Source of the DNA: a virus
Reading direction: 5' to 3' (one strand)
Virus record (IMG/VR): IMGVR_UViG_3300028550_003611
Coordinates: 1 to 52,878 of that record
DNA length: 52,878 bases
Positions 8,794 through 36,274 of the stretch are shown in pieces. A program made the position numbers and the translations under genes. Each line of letters begins with the position of its first letter. Position 1 is the stretch's first letter. Under the pieces are notes generated by a model. It was not told where the DNA came from, did not search any database, and was given only the letters and a program-made list of their open reading frames with translations.

Positions 8794-11553
8794 TTATGAA
8801 TTTATAATTGTGGGTAGCTCAATAGCCAGCTTCCCTTTGGCTTTTAAATAAATAGTTAATTCTCTTGTAAAATCTGAATTGTTTGATTGATAGAAGTTCA
8901 TATCACTTAAGAATATATCTACTTCATCCACAATCTCATCACGTATTGCTGCGTACTCTGCAACAGTTTCATCAAAGATTTCAGCTCCTGGTATATCTGC
9001 TAAGATAAACAATTCCGCTGATTTAGAGGCAATTAGGGCTTCAGAGTTATCATCATTCTGCACTGACGTACAGTATTCTTGAAACTTTTTTAACCTATTA
9101 GTTTGCTCTCTGAATTCAGTAAATACATCCTTAAGCTCTAAACTTCGAATGTACGTGTTTTCTCCTTTCTTGTATGCTTCTTCTAAAAATTGTGCTAGAT
9201 CTTCAAATCTAGGATCAACTTCTTTTAGTTTCCACACCCAATCAGGAGTCTTTCCTGCTATTCTGGAATTCATCCAATTTATTACTTCTTTACTCATAGT
9301 ATATTTACCTTCATTTGTTAGTTGTAGAAAGAAATCTTTTATTGGGTAACAATTAGGATTCTTCTGAACATACTTGATCTTATTCTCTGCAACTCTTAAT
9401 AGCTGAGGCGTAGTTATAAAAGACAAATCTTCTTGAAAACCTTTAGTTAGATTTGTTCCAGAATAATGTCTACCTAATATTGCAGGTACTTCATCGTAGT
9501 AATACACAGCATTGTCATTAGATCCTCGTGTATCCCCATAACCATCGTAACTACAATTTTGATATACTTCTCGTATTTTAGGAGCTTGGTTCCGCATAAT
9601 TTCTGCAGCTAACTTCATCCATAACTCATCTTCACGAGTACAATAGTAAGTCACACGATCACTAGTCATTACAGTCTTTAGCTTAGGCTCAACTTTATCC
9701 CACGTAAATGTAGAAACTGTTGCATCATCACTTTGACACCAACTACCGTTATTCCTAAGAGAGAAAGCAACTATACGCTTTTCAATCATACGTATTTCAG
9801 CAGCAGATAAACCTTCAGTAGCCTGTAACTCAGATACTTCTATCTCTCTATCTTTAAACTCTTCAAGCCATTCATCGTCTGGCTCTACAATTGAGTAGTC
9901 TTTAAATAGTTTTGAATCTTTAAGTAGCGGAGTTAACAAGTCTTGATTTGTCTGCATCTTAGCTAGCTGAAGCATATCTGTATCGTTAGACGCAGCTTTT
10001 AACGTAAGAGTATCTAGACTCTTAGGAGTAATAAGCGTAAAAGATCTTTTTCCATAATCAGATGAATTACCAATAATAAAATGATCTTTTAAGTTATTTC
10101 TACTGTCACCTTCTTCTCTAAAGTATACTTTATCAAAATCAATATCTGACCAGCTTTCTGTAGAATTAGTTTCAATAGACAGCTTACCTCCTTTAACAAG
10201 AGCAGTAACTTTACTAATATTAAAAGCTTTAAACAATCCTTTAGGTCCTGCATACTGTAAAGTAGTATCCGAGAACTTAGGTTTCATGTTATTAGTATCA
10301 ATGATCTTAGAAATCTGACGCAGTGCTGAATTATCTGCATTCATAGAATCAGTCAATACATCTCTGCATGCTTTAATCCATTCTAAGAAATCAGTACTTT
10401 GTAGTTGATCTTGCACTAAGTCAACAGCTTCTTCAGCAGCTTTAAGAATAAGGTCTTGAACAAACTTCTTAGTGTGCTCATTCCATATAACTTTCTCACG
10501 AGAAGGAGTAACTTCTACACCCTCCTGAAGAACTATCTCTTTACCTGTCTCGTCTTTTAAGACTTGACGCATAGGACACTTAAGACCTACAGAACCCCAC
10601 AGTTGTTCCATCTCTAGCTCTCTAAAGTCTACATACCCATAGTTAATGCCCGTGGTTGCACCAGGAGCTTTAACGATTACGATATGGGGCCTAGAATACA
10701 TATAGCTGTCTGCTACAAGCAGAGAGTTAGAGTTGTGTATAACTTCAGATAGGAAATTCCTAGGAGATTCATATCCATCTTCATTGATAACTTTAAGCTT
10801 AACGTTGCTTAAATACATAAGCTGCTCTTCAACAGCTTCTTCAAACCTGTTACGGTTATGCTTTTTTACACCAAATGATATTTCTGTGTAGTTAAGCTCG
10901 TCTGTATTATGATAGTGAACTTTAGTACCATCAGAGAATGTAATAAACGGATTAAATGCAGGCACATTAAACTTAGTAGTATACGGATAGCAGCTTAATT
11001 GAAACTTCTTGCCGTTATGCACAGTAGTAATGTTGTAGAAATCTACACCTGTAGATAAAGCTACCTTAGCACCTAAACCAAACGCACCGAAGTTCTCAGA
11101 AGTATTACGCTTAGTTGAGTAACCTAACTCTAGGATACCTTCTAAACGCTTACCTCCAATACCTACGCCGTAATCTTTAACAGTAAACGTATCACAAAAT
11201 CCTATTCCTTCGTTTTGTTTATACGTAATTTGAACATGACAGTTTTCTTTATCTAAAGATTCTTGATTATAATAACTGGAATCAAAATTAGAATCAGCAT
11301 ATGCTTCTCCTTTTCTTTCTATATAGTACTGATCTATTCTTTTCTCTCCTTTTAATATCTCTAATGCCATCTCCTTCTCCCGTTGTGAATCGCAGGCGTT
11401 AGTCACCAGCTCACGTACAGTTGAAGGTATGGGCGTAGAATATTGTGTAGACTGTAAGATGTCAAACACCATCTTCTCAGCACCTTTATTGATTTTCTTA
11501 GCAACACCTCCTGTGTTTGTAACGATGTCGTTATCAATAGTTTTTATACTCAT
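8794..11553 (-). CDS. rIIA-like protein, GHKL (HSP90-type) ATPase
   Basis: This 919-residue protein has an N-terminal Bergerat-fold ATPase. The N box is E48-L-V-T-N52-A-C-D55, the G1 box is D127-Y-G129-V-G-I and the G2 box is G156-A-F-G-L-G-A. The remaining 700 residues show no motif I recognise. T4 rIIA has the same GHKL N-terminal domain and is also followed by rIIB, so the pair is probably an early exclusion-protection or host-takeover unit. The gene starts 20 bases downstream of an intrinsic terminator that closes the preceding transcript, so it should have its own promoter in the A+T-rich 11554-11572 stretch or depend on read-through. I could not see a convincing TAnnTTTG box there. Confidence 0.8.
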   Translation of the reverse strand: MSIKTIDNDIVTNTGGVAKKINKGAEKMVFDILQSTQYSTPIPSTVRELVTNACDSQREKEMALEILKGEKRIDQYYIERKGEAYADSNFDSSYYNQESLDKENCHVQITYKQNEGIGFCDTFTVKDYGVGIGGKRLEGILELGYSTKRNTSENFGAFGLGAKVALSTGVDFYNITTVHNGKKFQLSCYPYTTKFNVPAFNPFITFSDGTKVHYHNTDELNYTEISFGVKKHNRNRFEEAVEEQLMYLSNVKLKVINEDGYESPRNFLSEVIHNSNSLLVADSYMYSRPHIVIVKAPGATTGINYGYVDFRELEMEQLWGSVGLKCPMRQVLKDETGKEIVLQEGVEVTPSREKVIWNEHTKKFVQDLILKAAEEAVDLVQDQLQSTDFLEWIKACRDVLTDSMNADNSALRQISKIIDTNNMKPKFSDTTLQYAGPKGLFKAFNISKVTALVKGGKLSIETNSTESWSDIDFDKVYFREEGDSRNNLKDHFIIGNSSDYGKRSFTLITPKSLDTLTLKAASNDTDMLQLAKMQTNQDLLTPLLKDSKLFKDYSIVEPDDEWLEEFKDREIEVSELQATEGLSAAEIRMIEKRIVAFSLRNNGSWCQSDDATVSTFTWDKVEPKLKTVMTSDRVTYYCTREDELWMKLAAEIMRNQAPKIREVYQNCSYDGYGDTRGSNDNAVYYYDEVPAILGRHYSGTNLTKGFQEDLSFITTPQLLRVAENKIKYVQKNPNCYPIKDFFLQLTNEGKYTMSKEVINWMNSRIAGKTPDWVWKLKEVDPRFEDLAQFLEEAYKKGENTYIRSLELKDVFTEFREQTNRLKKFQEYCTSVQNDDNSEALIASKSAELFILADIPGAEIFDETVAEYAAIRDEIVDEVDIFLSDMNFYQSNNSDFTRELTIYLKAKGKLAIELPTIINS

Positions 11554-25052: not shown

Positions 25053-27338
25053 TTATGACGGCTTAATAGACATTACCGTCTGCCCTTTAGGAATTTTATT
25101 TTTTTCCTTTTCTAAAGCTTTTTCCTCTGATAATTTTTTATTGTGTGCTATTATATCATTACGATTATCCTTATATCTTTGTATTTGCTTTTTAGTCATC
25201 CCCTTTAAACCTAAAGACGATCTTAACTTTCTTACTGCAGGTCTCCCATACGGAAATTTCTTGACACCTTTCTGAGCTTTACGCCTAACACCTCCTCTTC
25301 GTAAATTATACTTACTAGAATTTTTTCTCCCCCCTAGTTTAAATTCTGGACCCCCAGAAGTAGGATCATTGTTTTCTTCACCTAAAACTGTGATTGCTGT
25401 TCCTGCAGCAGCACCTGTTATAACAGGAGAATACTTTAGAAGATTCATAAGAGAAATAGCTTTTTCTGTTTCTGAGCCCCCTTTAAGAATTTTAAATAAG
25501 TCTTCCCCTCCTTTAGCTTTCATAGCTTCTTTTAAAACTTCAATTCCATCGACTCCAGCTTCTGAGAGTTCTGAAAAATCCCCAATAGCAATTTTTGATT
25601 CATCCAAATGCGACATCCCTGAAAATCGTTTATATCCATTTATCTCGGTTGAAAGAAACTTTCTTACTTCTTGAGTTCGTGCTGTAATTTCTTCTGCAGT
25701 AGCATAATATTTATTCAGACTCTCATCAGGTTGATAATATCTATTACCTTTAGTAACAGGAGAATATGCATCATCTACAAAAAGAGAGAGTTTATCTTTA
25801 ACAACTTTACCTGCATCAGTCTTTAAAAAGTGAAAAGTATTTTTATGATTTAATTCATGAATTCCTGTTGATGTAATACCCTCTTTGTTATACGTTTCCA
25901 ACCAATGAGTCTTGTCTCCTTTATTTTTTCCCCAAAGATTTTGCACAAAGGTTTTAGTTTTACCTTTAGACAGAGGATAAGCAAGTTCATTTACAAAAGC
26001 TTTATCTTTAATAGCTCCCCAAGATGAATGATCTGGCAGATATACTCCCCCAGACTCTGATATATGTGAAGATTTGTGTGCATTATGCCCTTTCTCAAGC
26101 GTACTTTTAGCTCCTTTATCAAAAACTTTACCTATATCATTTCCTTCTGCCATTGATTTTTCTGCAGCAAAGGCATCTCTTACAGCATCATCCCCATACT
26201 TTGCTATTAAATCTTTCATAGGATCCATACTGTTTTTAGGATTCCATAAAGGATCACTCATTATTTCAATTTGCTTCTTATTTATTGTAGGATATAACTC
26301 CTCAAAATGTTTTCGTATTTTAGGATCTTTATAAAATCCTTGACTAAATTCATCTGCTTCTTTTAGTGCAGAATTAAATTCTTTTTTAAACGGTGATTCT
26401 AAAATCTGTCTGCCCTTTATTCTTGCTGAAGACATATTCTTTAAATGATTTTTAACTGGGGCAGATACACTTTTAAGTCCTCCTTTAATTGTTTCTTTAA
26501 CTGCTGATTGTCCTGGAATTACTATTCCTGGTAGTGCTCCTAGAGTATTAAATCCAGCTTCTAAATATTCTCCTCTACCTAAATTTCCTGCAACCCTACT
26601 CCCATAATCTACCCATGCAGCTGGGTTAACAACATCAAGAGCCATATCTTGAGGAGTTTTCCCAATACCTCCCCTTGCGTCATACTCCGCTGGAGTTAAA
26701 CTTAATCCTTCTGTTGCAGGATGACTAAGTGCTTTCCAAGATTTAATTGGGGAACCAGCCATTTCTAAAAATCCTACTTCTTTTGTTTCATCTTTATCCG
26801 GGGCTTGAGAAATTGTACCTTGATCATGAATTTTATCGTACAATTCTGTTTTTTTATCAATTTCTTTTTTAGTTTTTACAACTTGTGCAAAATTCGCTCC
26901 TCCATCCGTTGCATCTAATAAACTAGAAACACTAGGAACATTTACTTTAGTATTGTCTGATTTAGTAGTAGTGCCTGTTACTAAATTTTGACCTATTGGG
27001 GAACCATATTTGTCTAACCCATTCTGAGCTCTTATTCTAGAGTTCTTTTTCTTTGCGTATTCAGGACTTAACAGTATCCCTTGCTCAGCTTTCTTTCTAC
27101 TCCAAAACCTAAATGGTTTTCTCTTGCTCCCTTTTTTACGACTTTTTTCTTTTCTACTTTTATTAGTACTAGAGTTCTCACTTGTTGTACTCCCATCTGG
27201 TTGATGACTTACATCTTTATTGTCATTATTACCATACGTTCCGTTTGTATGATTAATCTTATTTAACTCCGTACGGTTACTTATTGCCTTTTTAGAAGAT
27301 TGAAAATCTAAATATTCTTGTCTGTAGTCTCTCCCCAT
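25053..27338 (-). CDS. Large 761-aa protein with HELNH zinc-peptidase motif
   Basis: The N-terminal 150 residues are polar, Asn/Ser/Lys-rich and probably disordered. A central part holds a Gly/Ala-rich stretch around 240-290 and then H494-E-L-N-H498, a zincin HExxH motif (GIHELNHKNTF). Near 655-672 is a hydrophobic segment (SPVITGAAAGTAITVLG). The last 90 residues are very basic, with a GGRKNSSKYNLRRGGVRRK element. It looks like a virion-associated or ejected protein rather than a replication protein, yet it is on the early strand, one base after the type 9 secretion substrate gene. Role uncertain; a virion peptidase or internal protein is the best guess. Confidence 0.65.
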   Translation of the reverse strand: MGRDYRQEYLDFQSSKKAISNRTELNKINHTNGTYGNNDNKDVSHQPDGSTTSENSSTNKSRKEKSRKKGSKRKPFRFWSRKKAEQGILLSPEYAKKKNSRIRAQNGLDKYGSPIGQNLVTGTTTKSDNTKVNVPSVSSLLDATDGGANFAQVVKTKKEIDKKTELYDKIHDQGTISQAPDKDETKEVGFLEMAGSPIKSWKALSHPATEGLSLTPAEYDARGGIGKTPQDMALDVVNPAAWVDYGSRVAGNLGRGEYLEAGFNTLGALPGIVIPGQSAVKETIKGGLKSVSAPVKNHLKNMSSARIKGRQILESPFKKEFNSALKEADEFSQGFYKDPKIRKHFEELYPTINKKQIEIMSDPLWNPKNSMDPMKDLIAKYGDDAVRDAFAAEKSMAEGNDIGKVFDKGAKSTLEKGHNAHKSSHISESGGVYLPDHSSWGAIKDKAFVNELAYPLSKGKTKTFVQNLWGKNKGDKTHWLETYNKEGITSTGIHELNHKNTFHFLKTDAGKVVKDKLSLFVDDAYSPVTKGNRYYQPDESLNKYYATAEEITARTQEVRKFLSTEINGYKRFSGMSHLDESKIAIGDFSELSEAGVDGIEVLKEAMKAKGGEDLFKILKGGSETEKAISLMNLLKYSPVITGAAAGTAITVLGEENNDPTSGGPEFKLGGRKNSSKYNLRRGGVRRKAQKGVKKFPYGRPAVRKLRSSLGLKGMTKKQIQRYKDNRNDIIAHNKKLSEEKALEKEKNKIPKGQTVMSIKPS

Positions 27339-27339
27339 A

Positions 27340-28563
27340 TTAATATAGTACAGTTATTGTTCCGTTAAATTGAAACACACTTGCGTTCATAGAACTGTGT
27401 GCTGTTATAGTATAGACGTAAGTTCCTGTAGCAACGTCAGCATCCCACTCATCTATTGACGATGTACTTATCCATACAAGCCCACCCCATCTATTGTAGA
27501 TGCGAGTCTCCCATTGATCCCAACAAGCTCCGTCTGAAACAACCATCCAAGTATCATTCCATCCATCCCCATTAGGGGTTACAACATTTGGGGCAAAGAT
27601 TGAAGTCTCGTCACAAGGAAATGCTTCTGCACATTGTTCCCCCGTTTCACAATCTATATAAATAGATTCATATACAAAATCAGTTATAGTGTATGTATTA
27701 TAAACGTAGAGATACTCATATACAACCGTCTCTACATACATCGTGTCAGTTAAATAAATATATTCAAGCTCAACAAGAGTGTCTGTTTCTATCAACACAA
27801 TAGTATCGTATAGATACTCAATTATGTCTACATACTCAATTACTTGTACAGTGTCTGGGGGTAATTGAACATACTCTATCAATGTGTCCACTTCTGTAAT
27901 GTATAGAGTGTCTGTTGTTATCCACTCAACATCTATATAAATCGTATCAATAACATCTACATACACAGTATCACACGAAGGTGGGGCACAATATATAGCA
28001 GTGTTATTAGACAGGTCTACGTCAGGATAGTTCTGAGTTTGGTTAAACCCTGGATTCAACGCCCAACCTCCTTCAGCTATAAAAGCTGTGCGAGATAAAT
28101 TAATTTGCCACACAACTAACTCAGTACATAAAGTATCATTAGCTAATAGTTCTGCCCAACAATCGTTTGTACTTGCCCCTGTATCATAAACATTAGCACC
28201 CCAAGTATCACCATCGCTAAGAATCTGATTACCGTAAAGAGTAAAAACTTTAAACGTCCAACCTGGATGATTAACACCTGTTAGACAATCCATCCAATTA
28301 TAATCTAACCCTTCTACATGCAGCCCTAAAACAATATGAGATACTGTTGTGTTGTTAGTTACGTGTGGGCTAGAACTATTATCGCAAGTAGTTCCTACAC
28401 TAGTAAACTCGTTGCACCCACAGTTCTCACTGTTGATAGCCTCAACCACAATGTCACCCGTGGTAGCATCCCAACTATTAATAGCTACATCACATTGTGC
28501 GTTTACAGTTGTAGTAATAAAAATACTACATAAAATAAACAATACAAATTTTAATTGTTTCAT
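27340..28563 (-). CDS. Secreted protein with type 9 secretion system CHU_C-like sorting domain
   Basis: This 407-residue protein has a Sec signal peptide (about 1-22, ending VNA). A globular N-terminal part has paired Cys. Residues about 195-305 are a beta-type linker of repeated DTVYVDVIDTIYI-like units. The C-terminal domain from about residue 323 reads APNVVTPNGDGWNDTW, RIYNRWGGLVW and GTYVYTIT, the hallmarks of the gliding-motility-associated (CHU_C, type B) sorting domain of Bacteroidetes type 9 secretion. The phage protein should be exported to the host surface or released. It is coupled by ATGA to the upstream DUF5675 gene. Possible jobs are receptor masking, superinfection exclusion, or interference with surface adhesins; all are inference. 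Confidence 0.85.
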   Translation of the reverse strand: MKQLKFVLFILCSIFITTTVNAQCDVAINSWDATTGDIVVEAINSENCGCNEFTSVGTTCDNSSSPHVTNNTTVSHIVLGLHVEGLDYNWMDCLTGVNHPGWTFKVFTLYGNQILSDGDTWGANVYDTGASTNDCWAELLANDTLCTELVVWQINLSRTAFIAEGGWALNPGFNQTQNYPDVDLSNNTAIYCAPPSCDTVYVDVIDTIYIDVEWITTDTLYITEVDTLIEYVQLPPDTVQVIEYVDIIEYLYDTIVLIETDTLVELEYIYLTDTMYVETVVYEYLYVYNTYTITDFVYESIYIDCETGEQCAEAFPCDETSIFAPNVVTPNGDGWNDTWMVVSDGACWDQWETRIYNRWGGLVWISTSSIDEWDADVATGTYVYTITAHSSMNASVFQFNGTITVLY

Positions 28564-29039
28564 GATTCTATAGTTGAAAAATCAATATATTTAATAGTAA
28601 CATCTTGCCCTTTTTCTAAAACAGCAGCAATTCGTGGGTATACATTAAAGTAAGCTTCAGTGCTGTTACCTATAAACCCATTAGTTTTAATACTGTTATT
28701 TACTTGCGAGTTGCCCAATAATAAACATCCCGCAGTGTCTTCATCAGTATTGCCACAATGTATAAGGATATACTTAAAATTAGGGACATCAAGTACATGA
28801 AGCATACCAAGATGTATATCAGCAAACCTCTTGGAATACTTAGTATGATGTCCTCCAACAATCCTAAGACCAAGACAGTACTCTCCTTCAGGTATACAAG
28901 TTTCTCCCCACACTTTTTCAGTGCGGCTTTCATCTTCGAGAGTATAGCATAAAAATTCACGTTTTCCATTGTTTATTTCAAATAACATTCCGTTAGTTGA
29001 GTCCGTTCCGTAGTTAAATCTTAATACTTCTAATTGCAT
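28560..29039 (-). CDS. DUF5675-family protein
   Basis: A 159-residue protein with the family pattern CYTLEDESR, GETCIPEGEYCLGLR, then YILIHCGNTDEDTAGCLLLG and a C-terminal FxxxYPRIA block. The HxGN...DTxGC segment resembles the His/Cys active-site layout of L,D-transpeptidase-like folds, so peptidoglycan or cell-wall activity is possible but unproven. There is no signal peptide. It is co-translated between two exported proteins (10-base overlap upstream, 4-base overlap downstream). Confidence 0.75.
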   Translation of the reverse strand: MQLEVLRFNYGTDSTNGMLFEINNGKREFLCYTLEDESRTEKVWGETCIPEGEYCLGLRIVGGHHTKYSKRFADIHLGMLHVLDVPNFKYILIHCGNTDEDTAGCLLLGNSQVNNSIKTNGFIGNSTEAYFNVYPRIAAVLEKGQDVTIKYIDFSTIES

Positions 29040-29389
29040 GATCCGTAATTTGATAAAAAAGTTAATAAGTCGTTTACATCTACATCCCCATCTTCATTAA
29101 AGTCTCCAGCGCAAACTGGTTGAACACAGGAAGGATAGTTAGGGTGCTCTGTAAGCAAAGGATATACAAACCCATCCCCGTTTAAAACAAAAGCAGTTCC
29201 TATGTCTGCACAGTAAATTATAGTATATCCTCCCGCAGGTAATCCAAAGTAATGAGCTTCCCCATCGCAGTCTTGATACTGGAAATTTGTCCATTTTTCT
29301 GCCCCTACAGAAGTAAAGACATGCTGATTGCATTGGGCAATAGCAGTTAAGCTAAATATTAAAAATATTAAAGTAATTATATATTTCAT
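29030..29389 (-). CDS. Secreted protein with dockerin-like EF-hand repeat at the C terminus
   Basis: The 119-residue product has a clear signal peptide (MKYIITLIFLIFSLTAIAQ), a small Cys-containing beta domain and a C-terminal calcium-loop motif (C-x-G-DFNEDGDVDVNDLLTFL) like one dockerin/EF-hand repeat, ending in a Cys. Such tails are widespread in secreted proteins of flavobacteria. It is the first gene of the leftward cassette starting at the divergent control region. A surface or extracellular role in the infected host is likely. Confidence 0.75.
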   Translation of the reverse strand: MKYIITLIFLIFSLTAIAQCNQHVFTSVGAEKWTNFQYQDCDGEAHYFGLPAGGYTIIYCADIGTAFVLNGDGFVYPLLTEHPNYPSCVQPVCAGDFNEDGDVDVNDLLTFLSNYGSCN

Positions 29390-29433
29390 TGTTTTTTGTT
29401 AAGTCTATGCAGTAAATATACAACTTTTTAAGT

Positions 29434-29441
29434 TATCTTTG
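29434..29441 (+). promoter_or_regulatory. TAnnTTTG promoter -7 element ahead of the candidate RNA
   Basis: TATCTTTG matches the Bacteroidetes -7 consensus and lies about 5-7 bases before the first paired helix of the candidate RNA. A small dyad AACTT-TTT-AAGTT (29422-29434) precedes it. No clear -33 TTG was found at the right distance. Confidence 0.4.
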
Positions 29442-29445
29442 CGCC

Positions 29446-29700
29446 GAAACCGCTTCCTAGTGACCGGCCTCAGGTAATCAAAAAGAGGCCTAGACATCGG
29501 GTTACAGTAACTGTCAACATAGTCAGCGAACGTCGTCCCCGGTAGTTTCAAAATAAATGTTAATATAAAACTCAGGTGGGAACCAGGCTATAAGGTGTCG
29601 CCCCCACACAGGCTAAAAACGGTGAGTGGAAATTTAACACTAGACAAAAAAATTCGAAAAATCGAAGGGGCCTAATTGTATTTGGGCGACAAATTTAAAA
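29446..29700 (+). ncRNA. Candidate structured RNA in the divergent control region
   Basis: The segment is much richer in G+C than its surroundings and has no gene. Helices that can be read directly: GAAAC/GTTTC (29446-29450 with 29545-29549) and ACCGG/CCGGT (29463-29467 with 29539-29543) enclose a perfect GGCCTC/GAGGCC hairpin (29466-29490; its first two bases compete with the ACCGG helix) and a GTTACAGTAAC element. A second part has GTGT/ACAC (29595-29598 with 29606-29609), whose C-rich loop can pair with GGGCG at 29684-29688, a pseudoknot-like contact, or as a longer helix GTCGCCC/GGGCGAC (29597-29603 with 29684-29690). A TTCGA/TCGAA hairpin lies at 29653-29666. It matches no RNA family I know. 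It could be a free RNA, a leader of either strand, or an origin. Confidence 0.45.
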
Positions 29701-29707
29701 ATATTTT

Positions 29708-29748
29708 GTAACATAGCTTGTTACATAAGAGAAAGTTTTATATATTTG
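29708..29748 (+). promoter_or_regulatory. Promoter of the groES/late operon with palindromic operator
   Basis: A -33 TTG (29718-29720) and a -7 TATATTTG (29741-29748), 20 bases apart, fit the Bacteroidetes sigma factor consensus and predict a start about 10 bases before the GroES ATG. The -33 element lies inside a 17-base dyad GTAACA-TAGCT-TGTTAC (29708-29724), a plausible repressor or activator site. Confidence 0.65.
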
Positions 29749-29764
29749 TTGCAAACCAAACATT

Positions 29765-30052
29765 ATGCCAACAACAATAAACTTTCAGCCCACTAGAGAT
29801 TGGGTTGTGCTCCCAGTAAAGAATACTGAAAAAACAGAATCTGGAATTATTCTCCCAGAAAGTGTTCAAAAAACAATTAAAACTAACATTCTAACTGTAG
29901 TTGCTACAGGCCCTACTTGCGTAGACATCAAAGTTGGTCAAACAGTTATGGTCCATCCTACAACAGAAGGATTGATTATTGAGGTTGATGGAACCAGCTA
30001 TGTTATGGTCAATGAATTCATGATTTGTGGTATAATGCCAGAAAAAAAGTGA
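29765..30052 (+). CDS. groES: GroES-like co-chaperonin (Cpn10)
   Basis: This 95-residue protein aligns over its full length with Cpn10: the N-terminal strand PTRDWVVLPVK, the mobile-loop region EKTESGIILPES with the IIL hydrophobic tripeptide that docks on GroEL, then VVATGP, VKVGQTVMV and EVDGTSYVMVNE. No GroEL is encoded in the window, so it should act with the host chaperonin, as T4 gp31 does for capsid protein folding. It is the first gene of the rightward operon, shortly before the terminase and capsid genes, consistent with folding of the major capsid protein. Confidence 0.9.
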   Translation: MPTTINFQPTRDWVVLPVKNTEKTESGIILPESVQKTIKTNILTVVATGPTCVDIKVGQTVMVHPTTEGLIIEVDGTSYVMVNEFMICGIMPEKK

Positions 30053-33617: not shown

Positions 33618-35846
33618 ATGTATGGACAGGCGAATATTCCAAGACAACGGTTACCGAAGTCAAAGAAAACTAAAAAGTGGCAGGAAGAGTGTGTAGAAGC
33701 ATTTATAGACTTATCTAAGTTTGGGATATCTGATCGCAGATCTTATCTTAAGTCTTTATATGATTATTATAACGGTGTAATTGATGAGCAGGACTATAAA
33801 TATGTGCTTAAACCTTATGGTAAAACAAGACAAAACTTTCCTTCTAAATTACGCAACTACCCAATTATTAAACCTGTTATAGATTTATTACTTGGGGAAA
33901 AATCTAAACGTCCTCTTAACTATACTGTCACAGTTAAAAATGCTGATTCTGTATCTATTAAAGAGGAGGAAAAAAACAAAAAACTAGTAGAAATGGCTAG
34001 TAGAATGTTTATGGAGCAGCAACAACAACAACAAGCTCCTCAACAGCCTGGAGCGGCTCCGCCTCCACAAGAGAATCCAATTCCTGCTCAAATTATGTCT
34101 CAATTTGAGGCTTCATATGTAGATCGAAGAGCTACAAGTGGGCAAGCTGCTTTAAACTACATGTTGCAGAATGAAGAAATTTATGATAAATTCCAAAAAG
34201 GATTTTTTCATTATTTAGTTTCTGGTGAAGTGTACTCACACAAAGGAGTTAGACGCAATGAAGTTTTTTACAGCATAGTTAATCCTCTAGATGTAGACTA
34301 CGATAAAGATCCAGATTTAGAATTTGTAGAAGATGGCGACTGGGCAATGGTAAGAAGATATGCGCATGCTTCTACTCTTATTGATACGTTTGGGAATGTT
34401 TTAACTGATGAGCAAGTTTTAGAGTTAGAAAACCCTAGGCATTTATCTGCAGACTCATATTTATTATACAGATCTGAAGCAACTGGGACAGACCCTAACA
34501 TGTTTAGAAATAGACTTATAGAATCTGTAACTGTCTATTGGAAAAGCAGAAAAAGAATTGGATTCCTATCTTATCCTGATCCCGCTACTGGAATGATGGA
34601 GGAAATGGAAGTTGACGAAACATATAAACTTCCAGGAGAATTAAAAGCTGCGGGAGCAAAAATAAAATATGAATGGGTAAATGAAGTATGGGAAGGAACA
34701 AGATTAGATGGGAGGTTTTATGTAAATATGAACCCTATATTAAATCAAAGATCTTCTTTAGATAATCCATCTTTATGCAAGCTCCCAATAAACGGAAGAA
34801 AGTATTCTGATATTAATGCTGAAAACATTTCACTAGTATCTTTAGGTATTCCTCTTCAACTTAATTACAACATTTTTAAGTACCGCATGGAGTTAGCTAT
34901 TGCTAGATCTAAAGATATTATTGCACAGTTTGATATTAACATGATTCCTAAAAAGTGGGACATGGATAAGTTCATGTATTTTGTAGAAGGAACTGGAATT
35001 GCTTGGGTAGATTACAACAAAGAAGGTATACAACTTTCGCCTCAACATCAATCAGTTCTTGATATGTCTATTAAAACTATAGACCAATACTTAGGGTTAC
35101 TAGAATCTATTGTACAAGAGTGGGAAAAAATCTCAGGGGTCAACAGACAACGTCAAGGAGGTATAGGCCCATATGAAGGTAAAGCGTCTTCTCAACAAGC
35201 TATTGTGCAGTCTTCTCACATTACTGAAGACATGTTTAGAAAATTTGCTAGATTTGAGCAAAGAGAGCTGCAAGGTCTTTTGGATTACTCTAAAGAAGCA
35301 TGGGTAGATGGTAAAAAAGGCATGTATGTTATGCCAGATAATACTATGGCTATGCTAGATTTAGAATCACTTACTCATATGGAAAGTGAGTATGGTATTT
35401 TTGTTTCAGACTCTGGAAGAGACCAAGATAAACTTGAACAAGCTAAAGCACTAGCTCAATCTATGGTTCAAAACGGAGTACCTGCTTCTGCGGTACTTGA
35501 TTTGTTTGATACTGAAAACTTTGCAGGAATTAAAAAGAAGATTGAGGCAGCAGAAAAAACACAAAAAGAACTTGAGGCTAAGCAGGCAGAAGCGCAACAA
35601 CAGGCTCAACAAGCAGAATTACAGCAAAAACAAATGGCTGCACAACAGGAGGGTCTAGAAAAAGATAAAGATCGTCAAGTTATAATAGAAAAAGCTCTTA
35701 TTGAGGCTGAGTCTAGAGACCAAACTAATAAGTTAAATCTAGACATGGAAAAAATGATGAAAGATTTTGAGCTTAAAGAACAAGAATTAAGATTAAAAGA
35801 AGAAGCATTATATAGAGAAGGAGATATGGAACCTAACGGAAAATGA
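33618..35846 (+). CDS. Portal protein
   Basis: The 742-residue protein forms the dodecameric DNA gateway. It follows the terminase, has the wing/stem-like pattern of long helices (LAIARSKDIIAQFDINMIPKK) and a conserved VNEVWEGTRLDG segment (about residue 355-366) that I associate with crAss-like portals. A poly-Gln/Pro insertion lies near residues 133-155, and the C-terminal 120 residues are a Gln/Glu/Lys-rich coiled coil that may contact internal virion proteins. I begin at the ATG at 33618 rather than at a longer extension that overlaps the terminase gene. Confidence 0.85.
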   Translation: MYGQANIPRQRLPKSKKTKKWQEECVEAFIDLSKFGISDRRSYLKSLYDYYNGVIDEQDYKYVLKPYGKTRQNFPSKLRNYPIIKPVIDLLLGEKSKRPLNYTVTVKNADSVSIKEEEKNKKLVEMASRMFMEQQQQQQAPQQPGAAPPPQENPIPAQIMSQFEASYVDRRATSGQAALNYMLQNEEIYDKFQKGFFHYLVSGEVYSHKGVRRNEVFYSIVNPLDVDYDKDPDLEFVEDGDWAMVRRYAHASTLIDTFGNVLTDEQVLELENPRHLSADSYLLYRSEATGTDPNMFRNRLIESVTVYWKSRKRIGFLSYPDPATGMMEEMEVDETYKLPGELKAAGAKIKYEWVNEVWEGTRLDGRFYVNMNPILNQRSSLDNPSLCKLPINGRKYSDINAENISLVSLGIPLQLNYNIFKYRMELAIARSKDIIAQFDINMIPKKWDMDKFMYFVEGTGIAWVDYNKEGIQLSPQHQSVLDMSIKTIDQYLGLLESIVQEWEKISGVNRQRQGGIGPYEGKASSQQAIVQSSHITEDMFRKFARFEQRELQGLLDYSKEAWVDGKKGMYVMPDNTMAMLDLESLTHMESEYGIFVSDSGRDQDKLEQAKALAQSMVQNGVPASAVLDLFDTENFAGIKKKIEAAEKTQKELEAKQAEAQQQAQQAELQQKQMAAQQEGLEKDKDRQVIIEKALIEAESRDQTNKLNLDMEKMMKDFELKEQELRLKEEALYREGDMEPNGK

Positions 35847-36274
35847 CAAATAAAGAACGCAGAGATATAGTTAATAAAGCTCAAGAAGAAGGGTACCAAG
35901 GAAGTTATGTTGACTTATTTAAAAATCCTCCTATGGGAAGTATTAATCCAGAACTTTCTCAAGACATTAAAATAGCTAGAACTCCAGGAGAACAGGAACA
36001 AGGATTACGTCCTGCACATGCTCAAGGAAGAACTGAGACATCTATGGCTTTTCCAAATGTTGCTCCTGGCTCTAATTTTAACACTGTTGGCATGAAAAGC
36101 AACATAGATTTTAAAGAATTTGACAAATCTGGCGATTTAATTAAATCTTACGAAAATGTTCCTCCAGGCCTTTCAACTAGTTTTACTACTGGTACTGAGC
36201 CTTCTACAGTTCTTGAAACTCCTTCAAAATTACGATATGGCGGGCTTAAATATGGATCCGTAAAACGTAAGTGA
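35843..36274 (+). CDS. Uncharacterised 143-aa virion-region protein
   Basis: The polar, Pro/Gly-rich protein has little predicted secondary structure and ends KLRYGGLKYGSVKRK. A similar Gly-Arg/Lys motif occurs near the C terminus of the 761-aa HELNH protein, suggesting a shared virion-targeting tail (inference). The start overlaps the portal stop (ATGA). Confidence 0.6.
   Translation: MTNKERRDIVNKAQEEGYQGSYVDLFKNPPMGSINPELSQDIKIARTPGEQEQGLRPAHAQGRTETSMAFPNVAPGSNFNTVGMKSNIDFKEFDKSGDLIKSYENVPPGLSTSFTTGTEPSTVLETPSKLRYGGLKYGSVKRK

What the first reader, a model, noticed from the sequence alone, without database searches (positions are those of the whole stretch)
27340..28563. Phage-encoded type 9 secretion substrate with a type B (CHU_C-like) sorting domain
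A signal peptide, a DTVYVD-type beta linker and a C-terminal domain with TPNGDGWNDTW and IYNRWGGLVW in one phage gene indicate export by the host type 9 secretion system. That system moves gliding adhesins and enzymes to the surface of Bacteroidetes. A phage using it could coat the infected cell to block reinfection, mask the receptor or disturb gliding. The gene is in a tight operon with another exported protein, so the trait looks functional.
Basis: partly seen in the sequence, partly recalled or inferred. Interest (0 to 1): 0.82.

Follow-up and report, generated by a model that had tools for sequence, protein, structure and literature searches.

The report
Phage surface protein exported by host
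A virus of Bacteroidota bacteria carries a gene whose protein has the address tags for display on the outside of the infected cell through the host's own secretion machine, and the same two-gene unit has been traded among many otherwise unrelated viruses while being nearly absent from bacteria.

Summary
The gene is on the minus strand at 27340-28563 (407 aa): signal peptide cut before Gln (A22|Q23), a ~170-aa N-domain, an acidic "DTVYVD" linker and a C-terminal CHU_C domain (Pfam 56.5 bits, cutoff 27; the stricter type B model TIGR04131 scores 32.5 against 35, but 5 of 9 relatives tested exceed it and one equals it). The contig is a crAss-like phage, so host contamination is excluded.

The N-domain occurs in about 90 viral contigs. 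In 84,980 bacterial and archaeal genomes it was found once, on a mis-binned phage contig. It usually sits next to a second exported ~120-aa protein with a dockerin-like EF-hand. The window shares this pair (plus DUF5675) with phages whose terminases are only about 24% identical, while the N-domain is up to 90% identical: the module is exchanged between phages. In some phages the partner slot holds, or the N-domain is fused to, a secreted M43 metalloprotease. The N-domain is under strong purifying selection (dN/dS about 0.10).

T9SS export is very likely. The function after export (surface shielding is my choice) is inference. Phage T9SS cargo has precedent, so this is a new variant of a known kind.

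The parts
27340..28563 (-). CHUC gene: 407-aa predicted T9SS type B substrate
   Evidence: 77 viral loci with relatives
28498..28563 (-). signal peptide, residues 1-22, predicted cut A22|Q23 (Bacteroidetes Q-rule)
   Evidence: sequence; 45 of 48 distinct family leaders show [AGS]|Q-(T)C, two exceptions still cut before Q (AQTT, AQSD), one has a mis-called start; Q-rule PMC5837995
27979..28497 (-). virus-restricted N-domain, residues 23-195, seven invariant Cys, predicted beta-rich fold
27613..27978 (-). acidic Thr/Tyr/Val/Ile-rich DT[VIL]Y repeat linker and pre-CTD segment, residues 196-317; length varies in the family
27343..27612 (-). C-terminal CHU_C / T9SS type B sorting domain, residues 318-407 (Pfam match 323-391)
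29030..29389 (-). DOCK gene: 119-aa exported partner, signal peptide cut A18|Q19, conserved QCNQHVFTSVGA domain, single dockerin-like EF-hand (DFNEDGDVDVNDLLTFL), no T9SS CTD detected
   Evidence: 33 of 33 distinct leaders obey the Q-rule
28560..29039 (-). DUF5675 gene between DOCK and CHUC; no visible signal peptide; part of the shared gene set (in L002-type phages it lies several genes upstream of DOCK)
   Evidence: PF18925 E 1.9e-26, phrog_1501, DNA match to L002 81.7%
25053..27338 (-). neighbouring gene of the same operon, 761 aa, function unknown, one base after CHUC; not part of the exchanged module
   Evidence: no full-length relative in most module-bearing loci
29390..29764 (.). 375-bp intergenic stretch between the leftward operon and the rightward GroES/packaging genes; presumed to hold the operon's promoter
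   Evidence: no Rfam match or tRNA

Best explanation
The gene encodes a phage-specific surface protein that rides the host's Sec and type 9 secretion pathways. Steps: (1) the leader takes it through Sec, and signal peptidase I cuts before Q23 (indicated by sequence and family-wide conservation); (2) the N-domain folds in the periplasm, with its invariant cysteines probably forming disulfides (inferred); (3) the CHU_C domain is taken as a type B signal by the host T9SS with a host PorP/SprF partner, and the protein reaches the cell surface (strongly inferred); (4) the long acidic linker holds the N-domain away from the membrane (inferred); (5) the small co-exported DOCK protein, or in some phages a secreted M43 protease, acts with it (association shown by gene position, joint action inferred); (6) the most likely purpose is to coat or alter the infected cell's surface so that phages (incoming, or newly released progeny meeting host surfaces) do not bind there, a broad form of superinfection exclusion or receptor shielding (inferred). 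Confidence by step: export by T9SS about 0.9, exchanged phage module about 0.95, shielding function about 0.4.
For: CHU_C domain over cutoff; TIGR04131 over cutoff in relatives; Q-rule leaders in essentially all family members. Phage with crAss-like terminase. N-domain: about 90 viral contigs against one hit in 84,980 genomes, that one on a phage-like contig in a 5.8-Mb MAG with only that single CHU_C match. Module exchange: L006 has N-domain 90%, DOCK 72%, terminase 24% identity to the window, while close kin L005 has terminase 82% but N-domain 76%; DNA similarity to L006, L002, L007, L012, L016 is confined to the module genes. Purifying selection, median dN/dS 0.098 for the N-domain. DOCK within 3 kb in 42 of 60 distinct gene copies counting the window, several of the rest truncated. 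M43 proteases in the DOCK slot (L042/43, L068, L148) or fused (L065-067) point to action on surface proteins. F. johnsoniae gldD and gldG mutants show higher phage resistance (cited in PMC5682007), so the surface that gliding genes build matters for phage entry.
Against: No experiment. TIGR04131 is slightly below cutoff for this copy. No PorP/SprF gene was found in 40 phage records, so a host partner must be assumed; that search's controls were silent too. The N-domain has no fold match in the PDB, so no binding partner can be named. Near-constancy of the N-domain across phages with unrelated packaging genes argues against masking one specific receptor. Lysis-type genes lie nearby in several phages, which may mean a role in lysis rather than exclusion.
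Confidence: 0.5

Rival explanations
1. Lysis or release aid: made late with the lysis genes, the exported pair weakens or remodels the outer surface (S-layer, capsule, adhesins) so that cells detach and progeny spread.
For: In many relatives the module lies near DUF5675 and small TM-plus-coiled-coil genes, and in L039 a peptidoglycan-peptidase-like gene (by eye) directly precedes it; M43 proteases share the slot or are fused.
Against: Most copies have no recognisable enzyme domain; DUF5675 is not a proven lysis protein; no expression timing known.
Confidence: 0.25
2. T9SS or gliding interference: the abundant phage substrate occupies the T9SS or type B partners and so blocks delivery of host adhesins that serve other phages as receptors.
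For: Would explain why the same N-domain and CTD work for unrelated phages; single CHU_C per phage record; gliding-gene mutants are more phage-resistant (PMC5682007).
Against: Would not need a strongly conserved N-domain (dN/dS 0.098) or the DOCK partner.
Confidence: 0.12
3. Virion part: a capsid- or tail-decorating adhesin that happens to carry Ig-like domains, as proposed for crAss-BACON proteins.
For: Close to head genes on the genome; decoration is suggested for other crAss-like proteins (PMC6949934).
Against: Signal peptides with Q-rule cleavage in nearly every member and in DOCK, and a C-terminal sorting domain, are hard to reconcile with cytoplasmic virion assembly.
Confidence: 0.05
4. 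Host gene carried by chance or contamination, with no use to the phage.
For: CHU_C domains are host-type domains.
Against: N-domain nearly absent from bacterial genomes and present in about 90 viral contigs; the same genes recur in contigs of different lineage; purifying selection.
Confidence: 0.02

Closest known systems
Bacteroidota T9SS type B (CHU_C / TIGR04131) substrates such as gliding-associated adhesins
   Same: Sec leader, long low-complexity or beta linker, CHU_C domain at the extreme C-terminus
   Different: Encoded by a phage; N-domain not found in bacterial genomes apart from one phage contig; no PorP/SprF gene nearby; partnered with a small exported dockerin-like protein
Cryophage T9SS type A cargo proteins (Bellas et al. 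2020, PMC7468147)
   Same: Phage-encoded proteins with T9SS sorting domains, proposed to hijack the host system for virulence factors or superinfection exclusion
   Different: Type A sorting domain, enzymes or PA14 domain, variable islands of one phage; here type B, one conserved family across many phages
crAss-BACON ORF with T9SS sorting domain (PMC6949934)
   Same: T9SS sorting domain proteins in crAss-like gut phages, upstream of the head section
   Different: BACON repeats, linked to carbohydrate binding; no DOCK partner described
A0A7S9STS8, gliding motility-associated C-terminal domain-containing protein of Virus NIOZ-UU157 (BFVD/UniProt)
   Same: Best structural match of the N-domain (E 4e-12, TM 0.73 over the query, 33% identity, 406 aa); likely a member of this family
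   Different: Only a database entry; no description found in the papers searched
Superinfection-exclusion surface proteins such as T5 Llp and lambdoid Cor (own knowledge)
   Same: Phage-encoded, sent to the host surface, stop phage binding
   Different: Small lipoproteins acting on a known receptor; no T9SS; no homology claimed

Membership tests
T9SS type B substrate | C-terminal CHU_C (PF13585) domain above its curated cutoff, at the C-terminus | tested here: met
   56.5 bits against 27, residues 323-391 of 407
T9SS type B substrate | TIGR04131 model above its curated cutoff | tested here: inconclusive
   32.5 bits against 35 for the window copy; L005, L026, L047, L054, L063 at 38-41 and L065 at 35; L002, L012, L044 below
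T9SS type B substrate | N-terminal Sec signal peptide, Bacteroidetes Q-rule | tested here: met
   by motif and hydrophobicity only, no SignalP: A22|Q23 here; 45/48 distinct leaders in the family
T9SS type B substrate | CTD-dependent secretion through SprA with PorP/SprF | not testable with these tools
   no host genome; no PorP/SprF in 40 phage records, control search silent
T9SS type A substrate | PF18962 / TIGR04183 domain | tested here: not met
   no PF18962 match in the window record
crAss-like phage (Crassvirales relative) | terminase, portal and head proteins of the crAss type | tested here: met
   TerL best matches are crAss-like phages at up to 42% identity over 96-97%; phrog_6681, 6547, 11589 for terminase, portal, head; ring protein 3/4 just under cutoff (25.1 vs 27)
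Superinfection exclusion system | expression reduces phage adsorption or entry | not testable with these tools
   needs an experiment
Lysogenic-conversion moron of a temperate phage | integrase or prophage state | not tested
   no integrase noticed in the proteins searched; the rIIA-like gene hints at a lytic phage, but not every ORF was searched

The most novel reading that the evidence does not exclude
A virus-exclusive, freely exchanged surface cassette (N-domain protein with T9SS tag + DOCK, or a secreted M43 protease in its place) by which unrelated phages of Bacteroidota remodel the infected cell's surface through the host's T9SS, giving broad protection against other phages or against loss of progeny on host surfaces.
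Probability: 0.35. Interest if true: 0.85.

Novelty: new variant of a known kind. Interest (0 to 1): 0.66.

Why it matters
Phage use of the T9SS has been noted in single phages or clades as a curiosity. A near virus-restricted, strongly conserved and widely traded module suggests that controlling the host's outer surface through T9SS is a common strategy of phages of Bacteroidota. It gives a named gene pair that can be put into a laboratory flavobacterium to test export, adsorption and gliding. The protease variants suggest one scaffold with exchangeable effectors.

Tried and rejected
Host contamination: rejected. Chance match: rejected (E 3e-15). Reading DOCK as a full dockerin: only one half-repeat, weak Pfam and PDB matches, so called dockerin-like only. 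Fold search of the N-domain in the PDB: no match below E 0.01; lamin-tail and C2 folds are not credible. Fold search of DOCK in the PDB: nothing. PDB sequence searches with the protein and the N-domain profile: nothing. Phage-encoded PorP/SprF: none, but the control search was silent; the phage proteins that look like outer-membrane barrels do not match PorP_SprF in Pfam. PHROGs has no family for CHUC or DOCK. INPHARED has no DOCK match and only sorting-domain-level matches for CHUC. Plasmids: only the CTD matches, in Hymenobacter. Grouping loci by shared genes merges many contigs through single linkage, so it was used only to show that the window's group stands apart. Malformed coordinates wasted. 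No paper found on phage type B sorting domains.

Full report
CHECK OF THE OBSERVATION. The ORF 27340-28563 lies on the minus strand and encodes 407 aa with all the motifs named. CHU_C (PF13585) matches residues 323-391 with 56.5 bits against a cutoff of 27. The type B model TIGR04131 gives 32.5 bits against 35, while relatives L005, L026, L047, L054 and L063 exceed the cutoff and L065 equals it. The leader MKQLKFVLFILCSIFITTTVNA is followed by Q23, as the Bacteroidetes Q-rule predicts (PMC5837995). The operon runs leftward: DOCK 29030-29389, DUF5675 28560-29039, CHUC 27340-28563 and a 761-aa protein at 25053-27338, overlapping or one base apart. The adjacent upstream gene is DUF5675, without an evident signal peptide; the second exported protein is DOCK.

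THE CONTIG IS A PHAGE. The window has terminase, portal and major head protein, a family A DNA polymerase, an rIIA-like protein and a GroES-like protein. The terminase's nearest relatives are crAss-like phages at up to 42% identity, with Flavobacterium, Cellulophaga and Bacteroides phages further down the list. A tail gene comes close to the crAss ring protein 3/4 model (25.1 bits, cutoff 27). The host is therefore very probably a member of the Bacteroidota.

A PHAGE-SPECIFIC FAMILY. A first scan gave 77 viral loci with relatives. An N-domain profile (A1) found 90 in viral contigs but only one in 84,980 bacterial and archaeal species genomes. That one (L079) is on a 61.6-kb contig with phage-like gene content, including DOCK next to the module, in a MAG labelled Pseudomonadales whose 5.8 Mb hold just this one CHU_C domain; a T9SS bacterium such as F. 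johnsoniae has 12 type B proteins (PMC9127263). The scan uses two exact peptide patterns, one or both present in 57 of 58 distinct viral N-domains, so distant bacterial homologues could be missed; the claim is 'no close bacterial relative'. PHROGs has no matching family, and in INPHARED only the sorting domain matches, in two giant uncultured phages and one short fecal contig.

ANATOMY. The N-domain (56 aligned members) has seven invariant cysteines and nearly invariant ENCGCNEF and WQIN motifs. AlphaFold2 gives a beta-rich fold (pLDDT 74, pTM 0.75) with no PDB match. The viral library returns A0A7S9STS8, a 'gliding motility-associated C-terminal domain-containing protein' of Virus NIOZ-UU157 (E 4e-12, TM 0.73); the same virus has a crAss-type muzzle protein entry in that table. 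The linker is built mainly of D, T, Y, V, I and E, and its length varies (92 to 153 residues measured from the N-domain to the CTD TPN motif). Sorting domains come in distinguishable forms and have been swapped: L026, L027 and L031 share 85-87% of the N-domain with the window but only 40-44% of the CTD; L039 has a different N-domain (32%) with an 85% identical CTD. Median dN/dS is 0.098 for the N-domain, 0.19 for linker and CTD.

THE PARTNER AND THE MODULE. DOCK (119 aa here) has a Q-rule leader in all 33 distinct cases, an invariant core and one dockerin-like EF-hand; 59 viral loci hold it. Of 60 distinct CHUC copies examined, 42 (counting the window, whose own fetched locus was clipped) have DOCK within 3 kb, and about five of the others are cut by the end of the locus. 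In most phages DOCK directly precedes CHUC and overlaps it by about 10-13 bases; in the large-phage group it follows. Where DOCK is missing, L042/43, L068 and L148 have a secreted M43 (pappalysin-like) metalloprotease in its place with dockerin-like repeats and a C-terminal tail resembling a type A sorting domain (not above cutoffs), and L065-067 carry the M43 domain fused to the N-domain in one CHU_C protein. Some other groups (L044/L064, L054/L055, L141/L144) have neither next to CHUC.

EXCHANGE BETWEEN PHAGES. Against the window, L006 has N-domain 90%, DOCK 72%, terminase 24%; L002 86/79/22; L007 85/77/24. The close relative L005 has terminase 82% but N-domain 76%. DNA similarity to L002, L006, L007, L012 and L016 is limited to CHUC, DOCK and (L002) DUF5675, which sits in another order there. 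Other carriers include phages with baseplate wedge genes, with DNA ligase, with ribonucleotide reductase and primase-helicase, and with an unrelated terminase family.

HOW IT PROBABLY WORKS. Shown: the tags, conservation, partnership and exchange. Strongly inferred: Sec export, signal peptidase I cleavage with pyroglutamate formation, and T9SS export by the CHU_C tag with a host PorP/SprF, which type B substrates need (PMC9127263); none of 40 phage records has a PorP/SprF match, though the control search was also silent. Inferred: display on a linker, joint action with DOCK or a protease. The final purpose is a choice among rivals. I prefer a general surface shield because the module is useful to unrelated phages, its N-domain is conserved rather than diversified, and gliding-gene mutants of F. 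johnsoniae are more phage-resistant (reported in PMC5682007). A lysis or release role is the main rival: the module lies among late or lysis-type genes in several phages and protease variants exist.

NOVELTY. Phage-encoded T9SS cargo is not new: Cryophage has three type A cargo genes (PMC7468147) and a crAss-BACON protein has a T9SS sorting domain (PMC6949934); Q-rule exported proteins are reported for P. gingivalis phages (PMC10367356). New here, as far as the library shows, are the type B tag family in phages, the near virus-restricted N-domain, the conserved DOCK partner, the exchange between lineages and the protease substitution. Hence a new variant of a known kind.

Noticed in passing
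L012 2171-3214; L031 15916-16953; L035 1993-3090; L017 15224-16318; L068 2444-3475: Phage-encoded ~345-aa proteins with Q-rule leaders that look like outer-membrane beta-barrels by eye; no Pfam or NCBIfam match. In L031 one lies directly after a protein ending in a type A sorting domain.
   Followed up: partly
L012 4440-6578 and seven other phage records (those of L021, L031, L032, L035, L053, L068, L074): T9SS type A sorting domains (PF18962) over cutoff in 8 of 40 phage records that carry or border the module: some phages use both T9SS tags.
   Followed up: partly
L013 7461-9950; L079 6658-7947: A large DUF285/BspA-type leucine-rich repeat protein inserted between DOCK and CHUC.
   Followed up: no
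window 8794-11553: rIIA-like protein (phrog_612, E 4e-24) in a crAss-like phage.
   Followed up: no
window 29765-30052: GroES-like co-chaperonin divergent from the module; L079 carries GroEL-like and GroES-like genes beside DOCK.
   Followed up: no
window 29390-29764: 375-bp divergent intergenic stretch with a lower folding energy than shuffles (z -2.6); no Rfam match.
   Followed up: partly
window 25053-27338 and 35843-36274: Both proteins end in a similar Gly/Arg/Lys-rich tail (RRGGVRRKAQKG..., LRYGGLKYGSVKRK).
   Followed up: no
L065, L066, L067 (CHUC gene): M43 metalloprotease fused to the phage N-domain and CHU_C in one 951-969 aa protein.
   Followed up: partly
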